25,997 bases of DNA, from positions 1 through 25,997 of the IMG/VR virus record IMGVR_UViG_3300000270_000002. One strand, written 5' to 3'. Positions 323-25,997 of this stretch are shown here, piece after piece (position 1 is the stretch's first letter; each line of letters opens with the position of its first letter). The notes under the pieces were generated by a model. The model was not told the origin of the DNA, searched no databases, and worked only from the letters and a program-made list of their open reading frames with translations. This DNA is from a virus. Both the position numbers and the translations under genes were made by a program.

Positions 323-1486
323 ATGACGTTAGCAAAACTGATGAGAGACTGCATAACTGAAGCAAATAAGTGGAGTGCAGGGCGTGCTAAGAAGGTATTT
401 GGTGACGATTCACCAGATGCACGTAAGATAAAGCGCCGCTTTAAGATTAATGCTGCGGCCAGCTATATAAACGTATCAAGACAAGCCATAGAGAAAGCCG
501 AGAAAGAAGGGCGATTACCACCCGCAGATTATATCGATAGCAATGGTGTTAACCCTCGCCCTATTCGCCAAGGCTACACATTAGAACAAGTGGATATGAT
601 GAGAGACCATTTTCAAACTCAACCATATCAAACTGCAGAGTTAAGCCCGATAACACTCGCAATACCAGGTGGTAAAGGTGGTTGTTACAAAACCAGCACT
701 GCAGTTAGCTTTGCACAGTGGTGTTCATTGAAGGGCTATCGTGTGCTGTTAATCGACATAGATCAGCAGTCGCATGCATCGATGTATTTCGGTTATCACC
801 CTGAGTTAAATACGACTATTAACGATACCGTATTACCGTTTATGTTGGGTGAAGAAGATGATCTTAGCTATTGCATCAAAAGCACAGCTTGGCCAAAGCT
901 GGAAATCATCCCTAGCCACCTGCAGATGCAACGTCTAGAACGTGAAATTCAAGATGCTGATATAGATTATCCAGCACATGCCATGCTGCAGGCTGGCATT
1001 GCGACTGTTTCAGATAATTACGACCTAATCATTATTGACGGCCATCCAGACCTTGGTATTGGCACCATGAATATGATCTGCGCTTCCGATGTAACTTTGA
1101 TCGCAACATCAACAGAAGTAAACGACATCAACTCAACAGCACAACTTATGGGCCTTATTGGTGATATTTATGATCCAAAGTCTCAACTAGATACAACACA
1201 TGAACCAATTGTGCGCGTTCTGCCAACCAAGTTGGGCGCTTCAGGTTCAGCCAGTCAACAAAACGTACATGAGTTAATGGGCATATGGCCGGGCATGGTG
1301 CTTTTAAATGGTATTCGTGTAACTGACGAAGTGGGGAAAGGCCAGCGCAGAATGGCGTCTATTTATGAGCAAGCCGATGATCAACGTTCAAGTCCGGCGG
1401 CTTGGAAGCGTGCCAGCGATGTATTTGAACGCACCTTTGATGAATTACTTAACACACTAATAAAACCACAATGGGGTAACTCATGA
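323..1486 (+). CDS. parA: ParA/SopA-type partition ATPase (type Ia)
   Basis: This 387-residue protein is the cytoplasmic ATPase that moves plasmid copies apart over the nucleoid together with ParB. The N-terminal ~100 residues contain a helix-turn-helix segment (about 40-62), typical of large type Ia ParA/SopA proteins that also act as operon repressors. The deviant Walker A motif KGGCYKTS is at 118-125 with its signature lysine, A' (LLIDIDQQS) is at 142-150, and Walker B (LIIIDGHPD) is near 237-245. The start ATG has a GGGAG ribosome binding site at 313-317. The stop overlaps the ATG of parB by 4 bp, so the two are translationally coupled. Presence of this pair says the prophage is maintained extrachromosomally. 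Confidence 0.95.
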   Translation: MTLAKLMRDCITEANKWSAGRAKKVFGDDSPDARKIKRRFKINAAASYINVSRQAIEKAEKEGRLPPADYIDSNGVNPRPIRQGYTLEQVDMMRDHFQTQPYQTAELSPITLAIPGGKGGCYKTSTAVSFAQWCSLKGYRVLLIDIDQQSHASMYFGYHPELNTTINDTVLPFMLGEEDDLSYCIKSTAWPKLEIIPSHLQMQRLEREIQDADIDYPAHAMLQAGIATVSDNYDLIIIDGHPDLGIGTMNMICASDVTLIATSTEVNDINSTAQLMGLIGDIYDPKSQLDTTHEPIVRVLPTKLGASGSASQQNVHELMGIWPGMVLLNGIRVTDEVGKGQRRMASIYEQADDQRSSPAAWKRASDVFERTFDELLNTLIKPQWGNS

Positions 1487-2442
1487 ACAGCATTAAAAAC
1501 GATGTGGAAGTAGAATTGGCACCAAGCTCTGTATCAGTAGAAGCCGCAGGTAAAAAGAACAAACGTCAATTAAAGAAACTTGAAGCGAAAGCTGCTGCAG
1601 GTAGCACCATGACTCAAAAAGTCTTAGGTGAAGACGTTACATTTAAGCTGGTGGAAGTTAAGCCTAAAGACATTGACCGACGGACTATGGTTTGGATGGA
1701 GAATGAGCGAGATCAAGACTTACTTGATGAACATGCTCTTGCTCACCTAATACCTTCCTTTGAAGAAAACGGCCAGCAAGAACCTGCTAAGGGCAGAGAG
1801 CTATGCGGTATCTTTGAAATTGCTGATGGTAGTTCTAGACGAGGCACTGCAATAATAACTAAGAAGCCGTATTTTGCATGGATTGGTGATTTAACTGACG
1901 AACAAATGACGTATTTGTCTGATATAGGAAACACCTATAAAGACACCAGTGCTTATGAAAAAGGTAAAAAATACACTCGGTTATTAAAACAGGCCAATCA
2001 AGAGGAAGTTTCAAAATCAATAAAACTTTCTCGTAAAGCAATGATGCGATACGTTAAAACTGCATTGTTGCCCAAGGAGTTCATTCGCTGTCTATCGTCA
2101 CCTAATGAATTAAGCGCACGACGTGGTGAAACCCTGCTTACTATTTATAACAAACCCGCAACGCCGAAAGATGAAGTGATCGCGTTTTTTGATTTTTGGG
2201 CTGACAATTATAAGGGAACGTTAGGTACCGAGGAGTTAATTACGCTATTTGAAGATAAATGTGGCGTAACTAAAAAAACTGTTGAGGTAATAGAACCGAA
2301 GGGACTTGCTATGGGGGCAACTGTAAAAGTTAAAAATGGCAACGCGACATTTAATGTGCCAAAAGTATCGGATGATTCATTAGCAAAAATTGAGGCATTC
2401 ATATCGAAAACACTATCAGAAGAAGCGGTTAATAACTGCTAA
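1483..2442 (+). CDS. parB: ParB/SopB-type centromere-binding protein
   Basis: This 319-residue protein is the adaptor that binds centromere sites and stimulates ParA. The N-terminus is basic (about 23-40). The ParB nuclease-like/CTPase core includes the box DGSSRR at 115-120, corresponding to the arginine-rich box of SopB. The next stretch, GDLTDEQMTYLSDIGN (about 135-150) and SAYEKGKKYTRLL (about 156-168), reads like F SopB, and a helix-turn-helix follows at about 171-195. It starts within the end of parA (ATGA overlap) and is followed by a hairpin at 2449-2472. Similarity to SopB rather than to chromosomal ParB is my reading by eye. Likely target sites are the five 16-bp palindromes scattered in the late genes. 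Confidence 0.93.
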   Translation: MNSIKNDVEVELAPSSVSVEAAGKKNKRQLKKLEAKAAAGSTMTQKVLGEDVTFKLVEVKPKDIDRRTMVWMENERDQDLLDEHALAHLIPSFEENGQQEPAKGRELCGIFEIADGSSRRGTAIITKKPYFAWIGDLTDEQMTYLSDIGNTYKDTSAYEKGKKYTRLLKQANQEEVSKSIKLSRKAMMRYVKTALLPKEFIRCLSSPNELSARRGETLLTIYNKPATPKDEVIAFFDFWADNYKGTLGTEELITLFEDKCGVTKKTVEVIEPKGLAMGATVKVKNGNATFNVPKVSDDSLAKIEAFISKTLSEEAVNNC

Positions 2443-10408: not shown

Positions 10409-10600
10409 TTACTTCTCTTTGTTGGCGACCACGGTCGCAATTTTAATTTTAGGTTGTTTACCCATTAACAAGCCGCTCGCTTGTAGTTTGGTAAGCGAGA
10501 CTATTTCACCTTTCTTTTTCCAATGCTCGGAAGCTGGATCGCGGTAGCCATGCAGCACTTCATAATTTTGCTTTGGCATGCTTTTTTTTGTTGTTGACAT
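10409..10600 (-). CDS. Small basic protein upstream of the sheath gene (63 aa)
   Basis: A 63-residue basic protein, MSTTKKSMPKQNYEVLHGY..., with EHWKKKGEIVSLTKLQASGLLMG in the middle. A GGAG box precedes the ATG. Position directly before the sheath gene recalls the short proteins found there in Mu-like and some P2-like phages (for example Mu gp38), but I cannot assign it. Its C-terminus (KIATVVANKEK) is encoded by one copy of the 16-bp palindrome at 10424-10439, so part of its sequence may be dictated by the DNA site. Confidence 0.75.
   Translation of the reverse strand: MSTTKKSMPKQNYEVLHGYRDPASEHWKKKGEIVSLTKLQASGLLMGKQPKIKIATVVANKEK
10424..10439. repeat. Palindrome copy 1 (GGCGACCACGGTCGCA), putative ParB site
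   Basis: This copy matches the palindrome TGCGACC-n2-GGTCGCA at 13 of its 14 arm positions; the 2-nt centre is AC. It lies within the last codons of the small basic protein gene. Candidate SopB/ParB binding site. Confidence 0.7.
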
Positions 10601-14746: not shown

Positions 14747-15414
14747 GTTAGTAAATCCTTGAGTTCATCCGGCAGCACCGTTTCCATCACGGCCTTAGTG
14801 CAGGGGTCTTGCCAAAGTCGGTCCACTTGCTGAGATTGAGATAACGACTGCAGTTTTCCCACCACATCGGTGTATTGCACTTGCTCTTTATTGATCAGTG
14901 TTGCGACCTTTGCGATCGTGGTCGCAAGGCGTGCTGAAATATCACGCATCAACTGCTCAAACACATCAAGTTCTATTTGCGTGGCAATAAAATCATCAAT
15001 ACCGACAATCAATTCCTCTGCTGTAGCAGCAAGTTCGTCAAAATCAGCGTCACTTTCACCTTGAATTGAACCAAACACGTTGGTGGTATTACTGCAACCG
15101 GCTGCGACACCATCAACTTTTGCATCAAGAGTATTAACCGCTTTCGTCGCGGAGCTAATTTGCAGCGCCTCATTGGCAATTTTCGACATGTGACCAACAG
15201 AGCCTGATGCGGAGGTTTTTGCATTTTCAACCGCTGTTTTGGTACTCTCAATTAACAATGGGTCGACCATCAGGAGTTCTAACTGTGGGTTATCGAGTGC
15301 CAGATTCAATTCATCCAACTTAGCAATCGCACTGTTACCCACGATAATGGATGGACTGGACAGGTTTAAGCCGCCTGATTGGATGGCTTTATATAAATCA
15401 GAGTTAAATGACAT
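14743..15414 (-). CDS. Unknown helical protein between baseplate genes V and W
   Basis: This 223-residue protein is not present at this place in P2. It is mostly helical, with heptad-like segments (LDELNLALDNPQLELLMVDPLL, then ELAATAEELIVGIDDF) and few aromatic residues. A proper AGGT box precedes the ATG, and it overlaps W by 4 bp, so it belongs to the baseplate cluster. Repeat copy 2 of the palindrome lies in its LATTIAKVATL codons. I do not recognise the family; a baseplate or tail-tip accessory role is inferred only from context. Confidence 0.8.
   Translation of the reverse strand: MSFNSDLYKAIQSGGLNLSSPSIIVGNSAIAKLDELNLALDNPQLELLMVDPLLIESTKTAVENAKTSASGSVGHMSKIANEALQISSATKAVNTLDAKVDGVAAGCSNTTNVFGSIQGESDADFDELAATAEELIVGIDDFIATQIELDVFEQLMRDISARLATTIAKVATLINKEQVQYTDVVGKLQSLSQSQQVDRLWQDPCTKAVMETVLPDELKDLLT
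14911..14926. repeat. Palindrome copy 2 (TGCGATCGTGGTCGCA), putative ParB site
   Basis: The copy differs from the perfect palindrome by one base. A further half site TGCGACC lies 9 bp upstream at 14902-14908 in the same direction. It is inside the unknown gene between V and W. Confidence 0.7.
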
Positions 15415-21584: not shown

Positions 21585-21813
21585 AGTCGACCTCTACATC
21601 AACACTTTGCATAAGTGGTGTCGGGTTTAACTGCTGTTGCATATCAAACTCTAATGTTCGTAACTCAGACAGGTTAACATTCGAGTATTCCAATGATCTT
21701 TTTGAACCATTAGCATTTGTGTGTTCAACTTTTACTGTTCGCTGCCCCGACGCCAATGCCATGATGGCGATTTGCACAGCGCTTAAATTTTCAGGAGTCG
21801 CTAAAATAGTCAT
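21577..21813 (-). CDS. Head-tail joining protein W (lambda gpW-like)
   Basis: This 78-residue protein matches lambda gpW in length (68) and position, between terminase and portal, and stabilises packaged heads. The helical start LSAVQIAIMALASGQRTVKVE, then a beta-turn NANGSKRSLEYS and a second helix LSELRTLEFDMQQQL, fit the alpha+beta fold. It starts one base into the terminase stop (TAATG). Confidence 0.88.
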   Translation of the reverse strand: MTILATPENLSAVQIAIMALASGQRTVKVEHTNANGSKRSLEYSNVNLSELRTLEFDMQQQLNPTPLMQSVDVEVDYG

Positions 21814-23732
21814 TAATAAGCCTCGTAATCGGATGTTTCATAATTGTCTGAGTAATCGGGTTGTTCATCTGTAATGGATGCATTTATCATTGCAGGGTCA
21901 ACTAGCCCAAGCGGGCCTTGTGGGCTTGCGGCTTGAATTTCTAACCGTAAAAAATCATATAACCACAACACGTAAACAATTAAATCCCATGGTTCATTTC
22001 TCGCTTGTCCCGGCTTTTTACTCCACTTAACGTTGCTCCCACTTCCCACCAATTCCTCGGCAGTGATCATCTGAAAATAATTAAGATTAAATGTATCGTT
22101 AACTGGAAAATGAATGTAGTTTTTGCCGGGTAGTTCGTTATTAAGTCGCTCTGCAGCGCGGTTTTTTAGCTGATGTACATTGAGACTTCGAAATTCACAA
22201 TTTGCTTCAGCATGAGTCTTGTGAGTTAACGTCAACTCAGGTCTAAATTTATTTTTACCATTTGCTTCACCACGGATGGCATAAATCCAGCCGTGATATG
22301 GGGCTACAAACTCCAGCATTGCTTTCCATGCATGACCGTTACAATCCATCACTACGTTATAAACGCTAAGTTCTCGACCATCCTGCAAACGAAAGCGTAC
22401 AGATAACTGTTCAATTAGTTCCTGTTGAGTAGACTCATCTTCGGGATCACCCATTACGGTTTGATAATCAATCGCCCACATTTCGCCACGATATCCCATC
22501 AACCAAATGTGATACTCGAAACGATTTTTTTGGGTATCAACAGAGGCCAATAAACAACGCGCTTCAATAGGTAGTTGCTGCGAAGGATCGTAATATTCAC
22601 GCCGTTCATACAGCGCATCGAAATTATTTAATTTATGGATTTTTTGAGTTGTTGAAAATTCAACGCCGACTTTGGTATTCATGAAAGACTGCATCTTCAG
22701 CGGGTCTTTTTTGGCCTTGGCGTATTCTTTTGCCAGTGTGGGCAATGCTGTATTGGGGTTGTCGTTATAGGCCATCCAAATATGGAAGCCTGCATCAACT
22801 TTACCGCGTTCATTGACATCACCTGGCTTATGACATTTGCAACAGAGTGCAGTGCCTGTTTCGTCCCATAACTCTGGCATTTGATGTGTATCGCAGCACG
22901 AAAATTCCCGTGTTGCTCGCCACTGTCCATTTTCAACCATATTGAATTTATGGTGTTCGTATATTTTCCCGGAACATTCAACGCAAACAAAGTGTGCTGA
23001 TTTATAATCATCTTTTTTGTAACGTAAATTTTCTAACTTCAAGCGCTGCATTTCATTGCAATGCGGACACGGCACATATAAATAGCGTTGGTCAGTAAGC
23101 AAAAACTCTTTTGTTATTTTACAGGTACCCGCCTCTTTTGGCGTTGAACCCATAACAACCTTACGTTTGCTTTCAGTCTCTGTTCGCGTGATCGCGTTCT
23201 CAACGGGATCACCTTCATTATCTGGGTTTTCAGGCCAACCAGACACTTCATCAAGAAACAGATAACGTATGGTAACCATACGAAATGAACCTGCAGACGT
23301 AGCCCAAACAACAGAGAAATCACCACCATAAAAGGCTTTCTCGGTGCTGGTGTTTTTACCGAGCATACATTTCGCAACGGGTGCGCAGTAGGTGAAAACC
23401 TTACCTGCTTCTTTGGTCGCATACTTTTCAGCATCGGTATTGGTGTTCTGCGCAACCATGATATTTGCTGGATCATTTGTTATTGACCAACCAATACAGG
23501 TATTCATAAAAATGGCATAACCAACACGCGCACTTTTAGATAAAACGATTTTTTCTATATAAGGCGATTCATAAGCCAACAACCAAGCGCGTTGAAACGC
23601 TTTAGGTTTGTATATCTGCGCATCTGGATTTTGGTTAGTCGTTGCCCAAGTAATTATCTCCGTCTTCTTCGGCGGAACGATAATATTTAGAATGCCTCTC
23701 GATAATTGGCGAGATAATTGACTGCAATTCAT
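21813..23732 (-). CDS. Terminase large subunit (lambda gpA-like)
   Basis: This 639-residue packaging ATPase and cos-cleaving nuclease resembles lambda gpA. The Walker A-like SKSARVGYA is at 65-73 (lambda has KSARVGYS), Walker B LFLDE at 158-162, coupling motif GSTPKEAGTC near 195-204, zinc-ribbon pairs CPHC (222-225) and CVEC (250-253), and nuclease-type aspartates in VDTQKNRFEYHIW and VVMDCNGHAW. The ATG at 23732 is 98 bp inside the small subunit gene. The following PPKKTEIITWA matches the gpA N-terminus, so I believe the overlap is real. Confidence 0.93.
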   Translation of the reverse strand: MNCSQLSRQLSRGILNIIVPPKKTEIITWATTNQNPDAQIYKPKAFQRAWLLAYESPYIEKIVLSKSARVGYAIFMNTCIGWSITNDPANIMVAQNTNTDAEKYATKEAGKVFTYCAPVAKCMLGKNTSTEKAFYGGDFSVVWATSAGSFRMVTIRYLFLDEVSGWPENPDNEGDPVENAITRTETESKRKVVMGSTPKEAGTCKITKEFLLTDQRYLYVPCPHCNEMQRLKLENLRYKKDDYKSAHFVCVECSGKIYEHHKFNMVENGQWRATREFSCCDTHQMPELWDETGTALCCKCHKPGDVNERGKVDAGFHIWMAYNDNPNTALPTLAKEYAKAKKDPLKMQSFMNTKVGVEFSTTQKIHKLNNFDALYERREYYDPSQQLPIEARCLLASVDTQKNRFEYHIWLMGYRGEMWAIDYQTVMGDPEDESTQQELIEQLSVRFRLQDGRELSVYNVVMDCNGHAWKAMLEFVAPYHGWIYAIRGEANGKNKFRPELTLTHKTHAEANCEFRSLNVHQLKNRAAERLNNELPGKNYIHFPVNDTFNLNYFQMITAEELVGSGSNVKWSKKPGQARNEPWDLIVYVLWLYDFLRLEIQAASPQGPLGLVDPAMINASITDEQPDYSDNYETSDYEAY

Positions 23733-24228
23733 CTAAGCCCTTCTCATTCAATTCATAAAGAGCATCGTGGACTAAGTCATCAATTATTTTTATTGTTGAT
23801 GGATCGAGTGGAGACCTTTTTGATATCTGGTTAGGTAAATCAACCAACTTGCTCTTAACTAGTGATAGGGGTTTGTTGTACAGTTCCATAATCGCGTCAA
23901 ACGGAACCATTTCCCCTAAATCTTTTTCGTTCTGCAGGCGGATTTTTATCGCACCCTGCTTCTCTTTTTCCGTTTTCCATTCATCACTATTTTCCGGTTC
24001 TTTTTCGCTTTTGCTGTTTCCACTTTGACTGCTCATATCACGGCCATGTGCCGCTTTCATCTTTCGGATAATTTCAGACTGATGTTTAACAAATGCTTTT
24101 GCGGATTCATCAACAATTATTTTGCCATTTTTATCTCGAACAAATTCGTAACCATTTGTTTTACTTTGATTCGACAAAGTTTTAGCTGACACACCTAAGT
24201 AGTCAGCGACTGCTTTAGCTGTGCTCAT
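23635..24228 (-). CDS. Terminase small subunit (Nu1-like)
   Basis: This 197-residue protein recognises cos DNA and recruits the large subunit. The N-terminal winged helix-turn-helix AVADYLGVSAKTLSN resembles Nu1, a hydrophilic linker follows (about 55-90, with HGRDMSSQSGNSK), and the helical region IKIRLQNEKDLGEM onward is for oligomerisation and contact with gpA. GAGGA is 4 nt before the ATG. The candidate cos palindrome lies about 145 bp upstream, as expected for a lambda-type gene order. Confidence 0.88.
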   Translation of the reverse strand: MSTAKAVADYLGVSAKTLSNQSKTNGYEFVRDKNGKIIVDESAKAFVKHQSEIIRKMKAAHGRDMSSQSGNSKSEKEPENSDEWKTEKEKQGAIKIRLQNEKDLGEMVPFDAIMELYNKPLSLVKSKLVDLPNQISKRSPLDPSTIKIIDDLVHDALYELNEKGLDELQSIISPIIERHSKYYRSAEEDGDNYLGND

Positions 24229-24339
24229 AAATCCTCAACAAATAGCCAATTAAGGCAAAATAACTGTTGTTTAAGTTCAGTTTTATTCAATTCAATAAAC
24301 TGGAAACAGAAACAGTCAAAAAAAAATAAAAAAATTGTC

Positions 24340-24354
24340 AGACTAGGCGAGTCT
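24340..24354. repeat. Short hairpin AGACT-AGGCG-AGTCT in the cos region
   Basis: Five-base inverted arms (24340-24344 and 24350-24354) sit beside an A9-T-A7 run at 24318-24334, which should be bent. Both lie between the terminase small gene and the GC-rich palindrome, where lambda has its terminase-binding and IHF sites. Confidence 0.45.
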
Positions 24355-24359
24355 ACATA

Positions 24360-24407
24360 CCCGCTGTACCGGGGCCCGGGCCCTGAGTACCTTAAACGGT
24401 ATGCGGG
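24360..24407. other. Candidate cos site (GC-rich palindrome in an inverted-repeat frame)
   Basis: The core GGGCCCGGGCCC (24372-24383) is a perfect 12-bp palindrome in an AT-rich surrounding. It is flanked by CCCGC-tgt-ACCG (24360-24371) and CGGT-at-GCGGG (24397-24407), which are inverted copies of each other. Lambda cosN is a GC-rich 12-base staggered cut site just upstream of Nu1. Position and size agree here. A fully palindromic overhang would be self-complementary, which is unusual, so the exact nick positions are uncertain. Confidence 0.55.
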
Positions 24408-24420
24408 ACTTATCCACCAT

Positions 24421-24436
24421 TGCGACCGTGGTCGCA
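24421..24436. repeat. Palindrome copy 3 (TGCGACCGTGGTCGCA), perfect; putative ParB site
   Basis: The arms TGCGACC and GGTCGCA are complete with centre GT. It lies directly after the stop codon of the hypothetical gene at 24437 and 14 bp from the cos candidate. It is the only copy clearly outside a gene. Confidence 0.8.
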
Positions 24437-24757: not shown

Positions 24758-24829
24758 ACCGTGTTACCCGTCCACGTGGAAGTCATGCCTGCATGTTAAA
24801 GCCCTCAGTTGAACACTACGGCACTTTGC

Positions 24830-24871
24830 CTTTATGTATAAGCAGGCTCGAAAACCTGCTTATACATAAAG
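24830..24871. repeat. Perfect 17-bp hairpin downstream of the spanin genes
   Basis: The arms CTTTATGTATAAGCAGG (24830-24846) and CCTGCTTATACATAAAG (24855-24871) are fully complementary with an 8-nt loop. It is larger than needed for a simple terminator and could stop, slow or protect transcripts between lysis and packaging genes. Confidence 0.8.
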
Positions 24872-24886
24872 CCAGCATTAGCTGGC
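24868..24886 (-). terminator. Terminator-like hairpin GCCAGC-GCTGGC
   Basis: On the - strand a 6-bp stem GCCAGC/GCTGGC with loop TAAT (24871-24886) is followed by TTTATG. It directly adjoins the 17-bp hairpin. On the + strand GTTATATTTATC follows. It is about 40 bp after the Rz1 stop. Confidence 0.6.
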
Positions 24887-25206: not shown

Positions 25207-25540
25207 TTTTGAGTAGTCCTTTAAGTTTGCCGACGGCTTTATTGACCGATGCGTCCACGGTCGCATTGTATTTTTTAATGAACTCAACAGCACGACGCTC
25301 ATCTTTTAAATGCTGAGTTAGCGTGTTAATCGTTGAGTTTAAGTTGGTGTTGATCTGTGAAACAATTTCAACCGACTGTTCCGTGGTGGCTAATTTTGCG
25401 GTTTTAACTTCTAACTGCAGGGCTTGTTTTTCAATTGTATTTTGCAACAATCCAATTCGTAACGATAAGAAACTGATCCCAGCAATAAACAACAAACCAA
25501 TCGCGGTTGTAGCATTTATCTTACTAAGAAAAGCAAACAT
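25109..25540 (-). CDS. Rz: Inner-membrane spanin (Rz-like)
   Basis: A 143-residue i-spanin with a basic start, one membrane segment (ATTAIGLLFIAGISFLSL, about 10-27), then a coiled-coil periplasmic part (NTIEKQALQLEVKTAKLA through TQHLKDERRAVEFIKKYN), ending in SMWQHYGAESSNPDS. With Rz1 it would fuse inner and outer membranes in the last step of lysis. Its codons near KYNATVDAS carry palindrome copy 4. The stop lies inside Rz1; the start overlaps the endolysin stop region. Confidence 0.85.
   Translation of the reverse strand: MFAFLSKINATTAIGLLFIAGISFLSLRIGLLQNTIEKQALQLEVKTAKLATTEQSVEIVSQINTNLNSTINTLTQHLKDERRAVEFIKKYNATVDASVNKAVGKLKGLLKNEKDDCGSRPLPTDVVDSMWQHYGAESSNPDS
25250..25265. repeat. 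Palindrome copy 4 (TGCGTCCACGGTCGCA), putative ParB site
   Basis: One mismatch from the perfect palindrome. It is inside the Rz gene and also lies upstream of the Rz1 start in the overlap zone. Confidence 0.65.
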
Positions 25541-25997
25541 CAGTTTCCACCTTTCTTCGTTTGATCAGGCCGGGTAACTTCTTACCTGCGCCAGAAACCC
25601 AAAAACGCAATTCATTACAAGCATTCTTGTATCGACCTGCTTTAATGTGCTTGAAAATACGTGTCTCACTACCGTCCTGATTGTGTCTGAATCGCGTGCA
25701 GCCTGTGTTGAATATAAATGACGTAAAGGCGTCAACTTGCCCCTGGCTCATCAAGACATCACCCTTCGAGGTAATGAGACATGTTTCTGAGGAACTGATA
25801 TTGATAACCCAGTCGGTTGCAATTTCAGTTTCTGTTTTAATCTTTCCGGTAACATTGTGTGTGTTACCAATACCGTCGGTAGGTAAACCCGCAGGACAAA
25901 CATACGGTTTCAGTCTGCAGCTTTCTGCATTGCCTATAATTTCCAATGCGCGCTGAGATACATTAAGCATTGCGACCGTGGTCCCATTAATTTCAAC
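25524..25997 (-). CDS. Endolysin, GH24-type lysozyme (partial at window edge)
   Basis: The visible part has 148 residues from the ATG at 25970. Catalytic pattern: E16, then C25 (E-x8-C), then T31 (C-x5-T), the GH24 pattern in which the usual Asp is replaced by Cys, followed by GLPTDGIGNT and a helical C-terminal domain (AGRYKNACNELRFW). The frame stays open upstream to the window edge (VEINGTTVA), and the ATG at 25970 lacks a close ribosome binding site, so the true start may be outside the window. No signal or SAR helix is seen in the visible part. Partner spanins follow directly. Confidence 0.85.
   Translation of the reverse strand, partial: VEINGTTVAMLNVSQRALEIIGNAESCRLKPYVCPAGLPTDGIGNTHNVTGKIKTETEIATDWVINISSSETCLITSKGDVLMSQGQVDAFTSFIFNTGCTRFRHNQDGSETRIFKHIKAGRYKNACNELRFWVSGAGKKLPGLIKRRKVETDVCFS
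25971..25986. repeat. Palindrome copy 5 (TGCGACCGTGGTCCCA), putative ParB site
   Basis: One mismatch, and this changes the right arm to GGTCCCA, the arm of the F plasmid SopB site as I recall it. It adjoins or lies inside the endolysin gene at the window edge. Confidence 0.7.

What the first reader, a model, noticed from the sequence alone, without database searches (positions are those of the whole stretch)
24318..24436. Candidate cos region next to a centromere-like site
The 12-bp palindrome GGGCCCGGGCCC has flanking inverted copies (CCCGC-ACCG / CGGT-GCGGG), an A-rich run and a hairpin between it and the Nu1-like gene. The perfect palindrome copy 3 is only 14 bp from the outer arm, so ParB binding and terminase cleavage could interfere with each other or be coordinated.
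Basis: partly seen in the sequence, partly recalled or inferred. Interest (0 to 1): 0.65.

Follow-up and report, generated by a model that had tools for sequence, protein, structure and literature searches.

The report
Phage cos site beside ParB centromere

Summary
The region is a cos site, but the palindrome is very probably not where the DNA is cut. The window is a fragment of an N15-like telomere phage with ParA, SopB-type ParB and a lambda gpA-type terminase. About 20 homologous loci align without gaps over the region upstream of the cut: AGGTACT (cosQ slot), a variable spacer, GGGGCC, then CG|GGTNNNNN(N)ACT|CGC, a T-tract, and an R-like TTTCYGNTTCC about 38 bp past the second nick. The record start or ends of Val-yong3 and VP58.5 fall exactly at the homologous position. 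Adapter-tagged ends of the Valp1 record give a 12-nt overhang at the equivalent place in a related cos. GGGCCCGGGCCC is real, but its perfect symmetry is unique to this sequence; only its right half overlaps the conserved GGGGCC element. The outer arms and hairpin are no better than chance. The ParB site at 24421-24436 matches the N15 centromere core and lies 28 bp from cosQ. In other telomere phages the same site abuts cosQ with a fixed 'AAT' spacer. Any ParB-terminase interplay is untested.

The parts
24350..24361 (-). predicted cosN: 12-nt 5' cohesive end, GGTATGTAGACT on the - strand (AGTCTACATACC on +); nicks between 24361/24362 (- strand, GCG|GGT) and 24349/24350 (+ strand, GCG|AGT)
   Evidence: Alignment to about 20 homologous cos regions and to the record start or ends of Val-yong3 and VP58.5 and the lambda ends; partial dyad GCGnGT...ACnCGC. 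Nick positions are inferred.
24385..24392 (-). cosQ-like element AGGTACTC (slot of lambda/N15 GGGTCCT), 31 bp from its first base to the left nick
   Evidence: Conserved column set in the family; spacing 29-31 bp, as in lambda, N15 and VP58.5
24373..24378 (-). family-conserved GGGGCC element (here CGGGCC) between cosQ and cosN; coincides with the right half of the palindrome
   Evidence: Column information content 0.9-1.5 bits in 20 sequences; function unknown
24372..24383 (.).
24318..24334 (-). T-tract (A-rich on +) between cosN and the R-like site, bp 28-44 of the virion left end
   Evidence: Present in all family members
24302..24312 (-). R3-like TerS-binding site TTTCTGTTTCC, bp 50-60, 38 bp past the right nick
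   Evidence: Spacing essentially fixed in the family; same slot as N15 R3 (bp 48-60)
24421..24436 (.). ParB (SopB-type) centromere inverted repeat TGCGACCGTGGTCGCA, 28 bp from the cosQ-like element
   Evidence: Core identical to the N15 IR1/IR4 core on the other strand
10424..10440 (.). further ParB inverted repeat
14911..14926 (.). further ParB inverted repeat
23635..24228 (-). terminase small subunit (TerS, Nu1-like)
   Evidence: PHROG 57, E 3.6e-15
21813..23732 (-). terminase large subunit, lambda gpA family (ATPase and nuclease domains)
   Evidence: PF05876 E 8e-53 and PF20454 E 5e-52
1483..2442 (+). ParB, SopB type
   Evidence: PF18090 E 2e-9; phrog_1146; 48% identity to N15 SopB over 186 aa
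323..1486 (+). ParA ATPase
   Evidence: PF13614 E 4e-29

Best explanation
This is the cos site of an N15-like telomere phage. TerS binds an R-like element (24302-24312), aided by the T-tract, and places TerL (gpA) on a partly symmetric cosN. TerL makes staggered nicks at 24361/24362 (- strand) and 24349/24350 (+ strand), leaving 12-nt 5' ends (GGTATGTAGACT / AGTCTACATACC). The AGGTACT(C) element, possibly with GGGGCC, acts as the cosQ signal that stops packaging. The GC palindrome is a private sequence variant inside the cosQ-cosN interval, not the cut. The adjacent ParB site is one of several scattered N15-type centromere sites that hold the prophage as a stable plasmid. Shown: sequence conservation, spacing, homology and relatives' record ends. 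Inferred: the exact nicks, TerS binding and ParB binding.
For: gpA-type ATPase and nuclease domains. Ungapped upstream alignment of about 20 relatives with invariant CG|, strongly conserved ACTCGC, AGGTACT, the T-tract, and an R-like site about 38 bp from the right nick. The Val-yong3 record starts at GGTACGGAACT|CGC and the VP58.5 record ends ...GCG and starts GGTAACAAGCT|CGC. The Valp1 record is bounded by Illumina adapter sequence and shares a 12-nt terminal duplication, AGGTCATGCCCC, read here as filled-in 12-nt 5' ends at the equivalent place. Lambda/N15 cos anatomy and the R3 position at bp 48-65 are from PMC4669245 and PMC9026076. ParB site core identical to N15 IRs, with a SopB-type ParB encoded.
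Against: No virion ends exist for this phage. Overhang length is 12 in the window and L008 but 11 in other family members by the same rule, so a 1-nt error is possible. Deposited starts may have been chosen by homology rather than measured, and the VP58.5 and VP882 papers were not held. cosQ differs from the lambda GGGTCCT at 2 of 7 positions. A few homologues (L013, L017, L143, L144) deviate at the ACT|CGC edge.
Confidence: 0.86

Rival explanations
1. One reading: the palindrome GGGCCCGGGCCC is cosN, cut symmetrically to give self-complementary 12-nt ends, with the flanking inverted arms as terminase sites.
For: It lies between the lysis genes and TerS, is 12 bp, and lambda cosN also has partial two-fold symmetry.
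Against: Not conserved in 18 of 20 homologues. The homologous record starts or ends map about 20 bp away. The arms are at chance level. Fully self-complementary ends would let like ends join, which cos ends normally avoid (general knowledge).
Confidence: 0.04
2. The ParB site beside cosQ is functional coupling: ParB bound there, and spreading, masks cosQ/cosN or silences the TerS side in the plasmid prophage, and is removed on induction.
For: TGCGACC-NN-GGTCGCA-AT-GGGTCCTT with identical spacing in nine viral contigs plus Valp1, K242, K251, the V. vulnificus plasmid and Val-yong3, spanning different upstream genes and terminase types. The window and L012 keep the site 28-30 bp from cosQ. N15 SopB silences a promoter about 50 bp from an IR array (PMC7205306).
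Against: No binding or packaging data. In N15 the nearest site is about 0.8 kb from cos and in phiKO2 about 3 kb, so adjacency is not needed. Conservation could reflect shared descent or use of the junction as a module-exchange point.
Confidence: 0.25
3. The palindrome and arms form an RNA hairpin or terminator in the late transcript.
For: The strand can fold (-20 kcal/mol).
Against: z = -0.56 against shuffles, no following U-run, symmetry not conserved.
Confidence: 0.04

Closest known systems
cos of phage N15 (and lambda)
   Same: gpA-type terminase; order cosQ-cosN-R site-TerS; cosQ-to-nick spacing about 30 bp; CG| flanks; single R-like site in N15's R3 slot; cos and scattered SopB centromere IRs in one phage
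   Different: cosQ is AGGTACT rather than GGGTCCT; overhang sequence unlike lambda; extra GGGGCC element and long T-tract; nearest ParB IR 28 bp from cosQ instead of about 0.8 kb from cos in N15
Vibrio phage vB_Va_Val-yong3
   Same: TerL 68% aa identity; same cos type; record starts exactly at the predicted left nick; ParB 58.5%
   Different: 11-nt predicted overhang; carries a second, Valp1-type cos with the ParB site beside that one
Vibrio phages VP58.5 / VHML / MAR
   Same: TerL about 34% aa; CG|GGTAACAAGCT|CGC; exact lambda cosQ GGGTCCT; R-like site at bp 50
   Different: distant terminase; no ParB IR examined near cos
Vibrio phage Valp1 / K242 / V. vulnificus plasmid NZ_CP151590
   Same: same kind of ParB site, here directly abutting cosQ; related lysis-side genes
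   Different: different terminase and cosN (GGGGCATGACCT or GGGGCGTGACCT)

Membership tests
lambda/N15-like cos site | terminase of the lambda gpA/Nu1 type encoded next to it | tested here: met
   PF05876, PF20454 and PHROG 57
lambda/N15-like cos site | cosN with staggered nicks giving 5' ends of about 12 nt and partial two-fold symmetry | tested here: inconclusive
   Sequence and relatives' record ends agree; no ends measured for this phage
lambda/N15-like cos site | conserved 7-bp cosQ about 30 bp upstream of the nick | tested here: inconclusive
   AGGTACT at matching spacing and conserved in the family, but 5 of 7 against lambda GGGTCCT
lambda/N15-like cos site | R3 TerS site at about bp 48-65 | tested here: met
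   TTTCTGTTTCC at bp 50-60, fixed spacing in the family; binding not tested
lambda-type complex cosB | three R sites with an IHF site | tested here: inconclusive
   Only one R-like site recognised; anatomy resembles the simple N15 cosB; IHF site not searched for
N15-type (SopB) centromere site | core TGCGACCACGGTCGCA | tested here: met
   16 of 16 identity on the other strand
N15-type (SopB) centromere site | cognate SopB-family ParB in the genome | tested here: met
   PF18090; 48% identity over 186 aa
N15-type (SopB) centromere site | ParB binding and partition function | not testable with these tools
   needs an experiment
telomere phage | protelomerase and telRL palindrome | not tested
   The window covers only part of the genome; relatives Val-yong3 and Valp1 are annotated with protelomerase

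The most novel reading that the evidence does not exclude
In marine telomere phages a ParB centromere site is kept as a composite element with cosQ (invariant IR-AAT-GGGTCCTT in one group, 28-30 bp apart in the window's group), so that partition-complex assembly gates terminase access: plasmid maintenance and packaging are mutually exclusive states read out at one spot.
Probability: 0.17. Interest if true: 0.75.

Novelty: new member of a known kind. Interest (0 to 1): 0.42.

Why it matters
It gives a precise, testable cos prediction for a barely studied group of marine linear-plasmid phages and corrects the cut position. It also points to a recurring ParB-cosQ adjacency that would make a switch between plasmid partition and virion packaging directly testable. 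No description of that adjacency was found in the held papers, though key papers on VP58.5, VP882 and the N15 partition system were not held.

Tried and rejected
Palindrome as cosN: rejected by family alignment and relatives' record ends. Outer arms and hairpins: chance level. Pattern scan for the exact GGTACT-palindrome unit in viral contigs: none. Loose ParB-IR..GGTACT scan: 25 of 27 hits looked like GC-rich chance matches; only the two contigs with the L012 sequence were real. The 64-aa ORF next to the site as a search probe found no further loci. Near-identity plasmid search: no match. Broad GGTACT..GGGG..GCGGGT scan returned 110 stretches and was not analysed individually. VP58.5, VP882 and N15 partition papers were not held. 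The 1-nt overhang difference (12 against 11) is unexplained.

Full report
What the window is. The record is a 25,997-base viral contig. It encodes ParA and a SopB-type ParB at one end, lambda-type head genes with a gpA-family large terminase, a small terminase (23635-24228, -), and lysis genes beyond it. Its nearest annotated relatives are Vibrio telomere phages: Val-yong3 (TerL 68%, ParB 58.5%) and, on the lysis side, Valp1 and the K242 group.

The observation. The palindrome GGGCCCGGGCCC is real (24372-24383). Twelve-base perfect palindromes as such are expected (6 seen, 7.8 in shuffles), although an all-GC one is unusual in this AT-rich phage. The outer arms score no better than shuffled flanks (P 0.28), and neither the palindrome region nor the stretch up to TerS folds better than shuffles (z -0.56 and -0.69). 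The A-run is real and conserved.

Where the cut is. Relatives were gathered with TerS and TerL. Reading towards TerS, about 20 homologous regions align without gaps upstream of the nick: AGGTACT(C), six variable bases, GGGGCC, about nine bases, CG|GGT....ACT|CGC, a T-tract, and TTTCYGNTTCC. The CG before the nick is invariant; the R-like site is at bp 49 in members with an 11-nt overhang and bp 50 in the 12-nt members, that is 38 bp past the right nick (L022 is one base longer and L012 carries a variant motif read by eye). In lambda the cosN-R3 distance is critical and N15's R3 lies at bp 48-60 (PMC9026076). The window reads AGGTACTCAGGGCCCGGGCCCCGGTACAGCG|GGTATGTAGACT|CGCC, so the predicted overhang is 24350-24361.

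Independent support from ends. The VP58.5 record ends ...CTCTGCG and starts GGTAACAAGCTCGCG; the Val-yong3 record starts GGTACGGAACTCGCG after an end in CCGCG. The Valp1 record carries Illumina adapter sequence at both ends, and the insert ends share AGGTCATGCCCC; read as filled-in 5' overhangs this gives CACG|GGGGCATGACCT|CGCAG, the same arrangement as lambda CG|GGGCGGCGACCT|CGC. The first two could be depositors' choices; the Valp1 adapters look like physical ends, but that cos has a different sequence.

What the palindrome is. Its right half coincides with the family's GGGGCC element; its left half lies in the variable spacer. Only the closest relative (L008) has a dyad with the same centre, GCCTAGGC, with a double change at the centre; other members have none or dyads centred elsewhere. 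It is therefore most likely a private variant within the cosQ-cosN interval. Whether GGGGCC itself has a role, for instance as part of the stop signal, is open.

The ParB site. The site at 24421-24436 has the exact core of N15 IR1/IR4, in a genome with a SopB-type ParB. It is 28 bp from the cosQ-like element and 59 bp from the left nick. In Valp1, K242, K251, a V. vulnificus plasmid, Val-yong3 and nine viral contigs the IR is followed by the same short spacer and cosQ: TGCGACC-NN-GGTCGCA-AT-GGGTCCTT. Flanking DNA varies: L166 joins a window-like lysis-side gene to an L160-like terminase; L165 and L162 share lysis-side genes but have terminase regions about 69% alike over 180 bp. So the IR-cosQ unit persists across module exchanges. 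This may mark a favoured exchange junction, shared descent, or a functional unit. In N15 the nearest site is about 0.8 kb from the cos end and in phiKO2 about 3 kb, so adjacency is not universal. N15 SopB silences a promoter about 50 bp from an IR array (PMC7205306), which makes interference plausible; nothing here shows it.

Verdict. cos site: well supported. Palindrome as cut site: not supported. ParB coordination: an interesting but untested idea with some comparative support.

Noticed in passing
L002 (OP121182.1) 42300-42534 and 1-60: Val-yong3 carries a second, complete Valp1-type cos (ParB IR, GGGTCCTT, CACG|GGGGCGTGACCT|CGCAG, GGGTTTCCGGTTTCCGG) roughly 115 bp upstream of its own cos, a likely scar of a packaging-module swap.
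   Followed up: partly
L003 (OR500391.1) 1-29 and last 26 bases: The deposited Valp1 genome includes Illumina adapter sequence at both ends, which incidentally reveals its 12-nt terminal duplication.
   Followed up: yes
L160, L161, L166: A further cosN version (TACG|GGTGGCTAAACC|GCAGG) with the same ParB IR-AAT-cosQ unit.
   Followed up: partly
window 24827-24874: Strong 20-bp inverted repeat (95%) with an 8-base loop between the lysis genes and the small ORF before cos; no T-run follows.
   Followed up: no
window 25250-25266 and 25970-25986: Two degenerate ParB-like repeats (2 and 1 mismatches) in the lysis genes.
   Followed up: no
L017, L143, L144: Marinomonas-type relatives with altered cosN edges (CG|AGTCATAGACG|CGC), changed at both ends of the overhang.
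   Followed up: no
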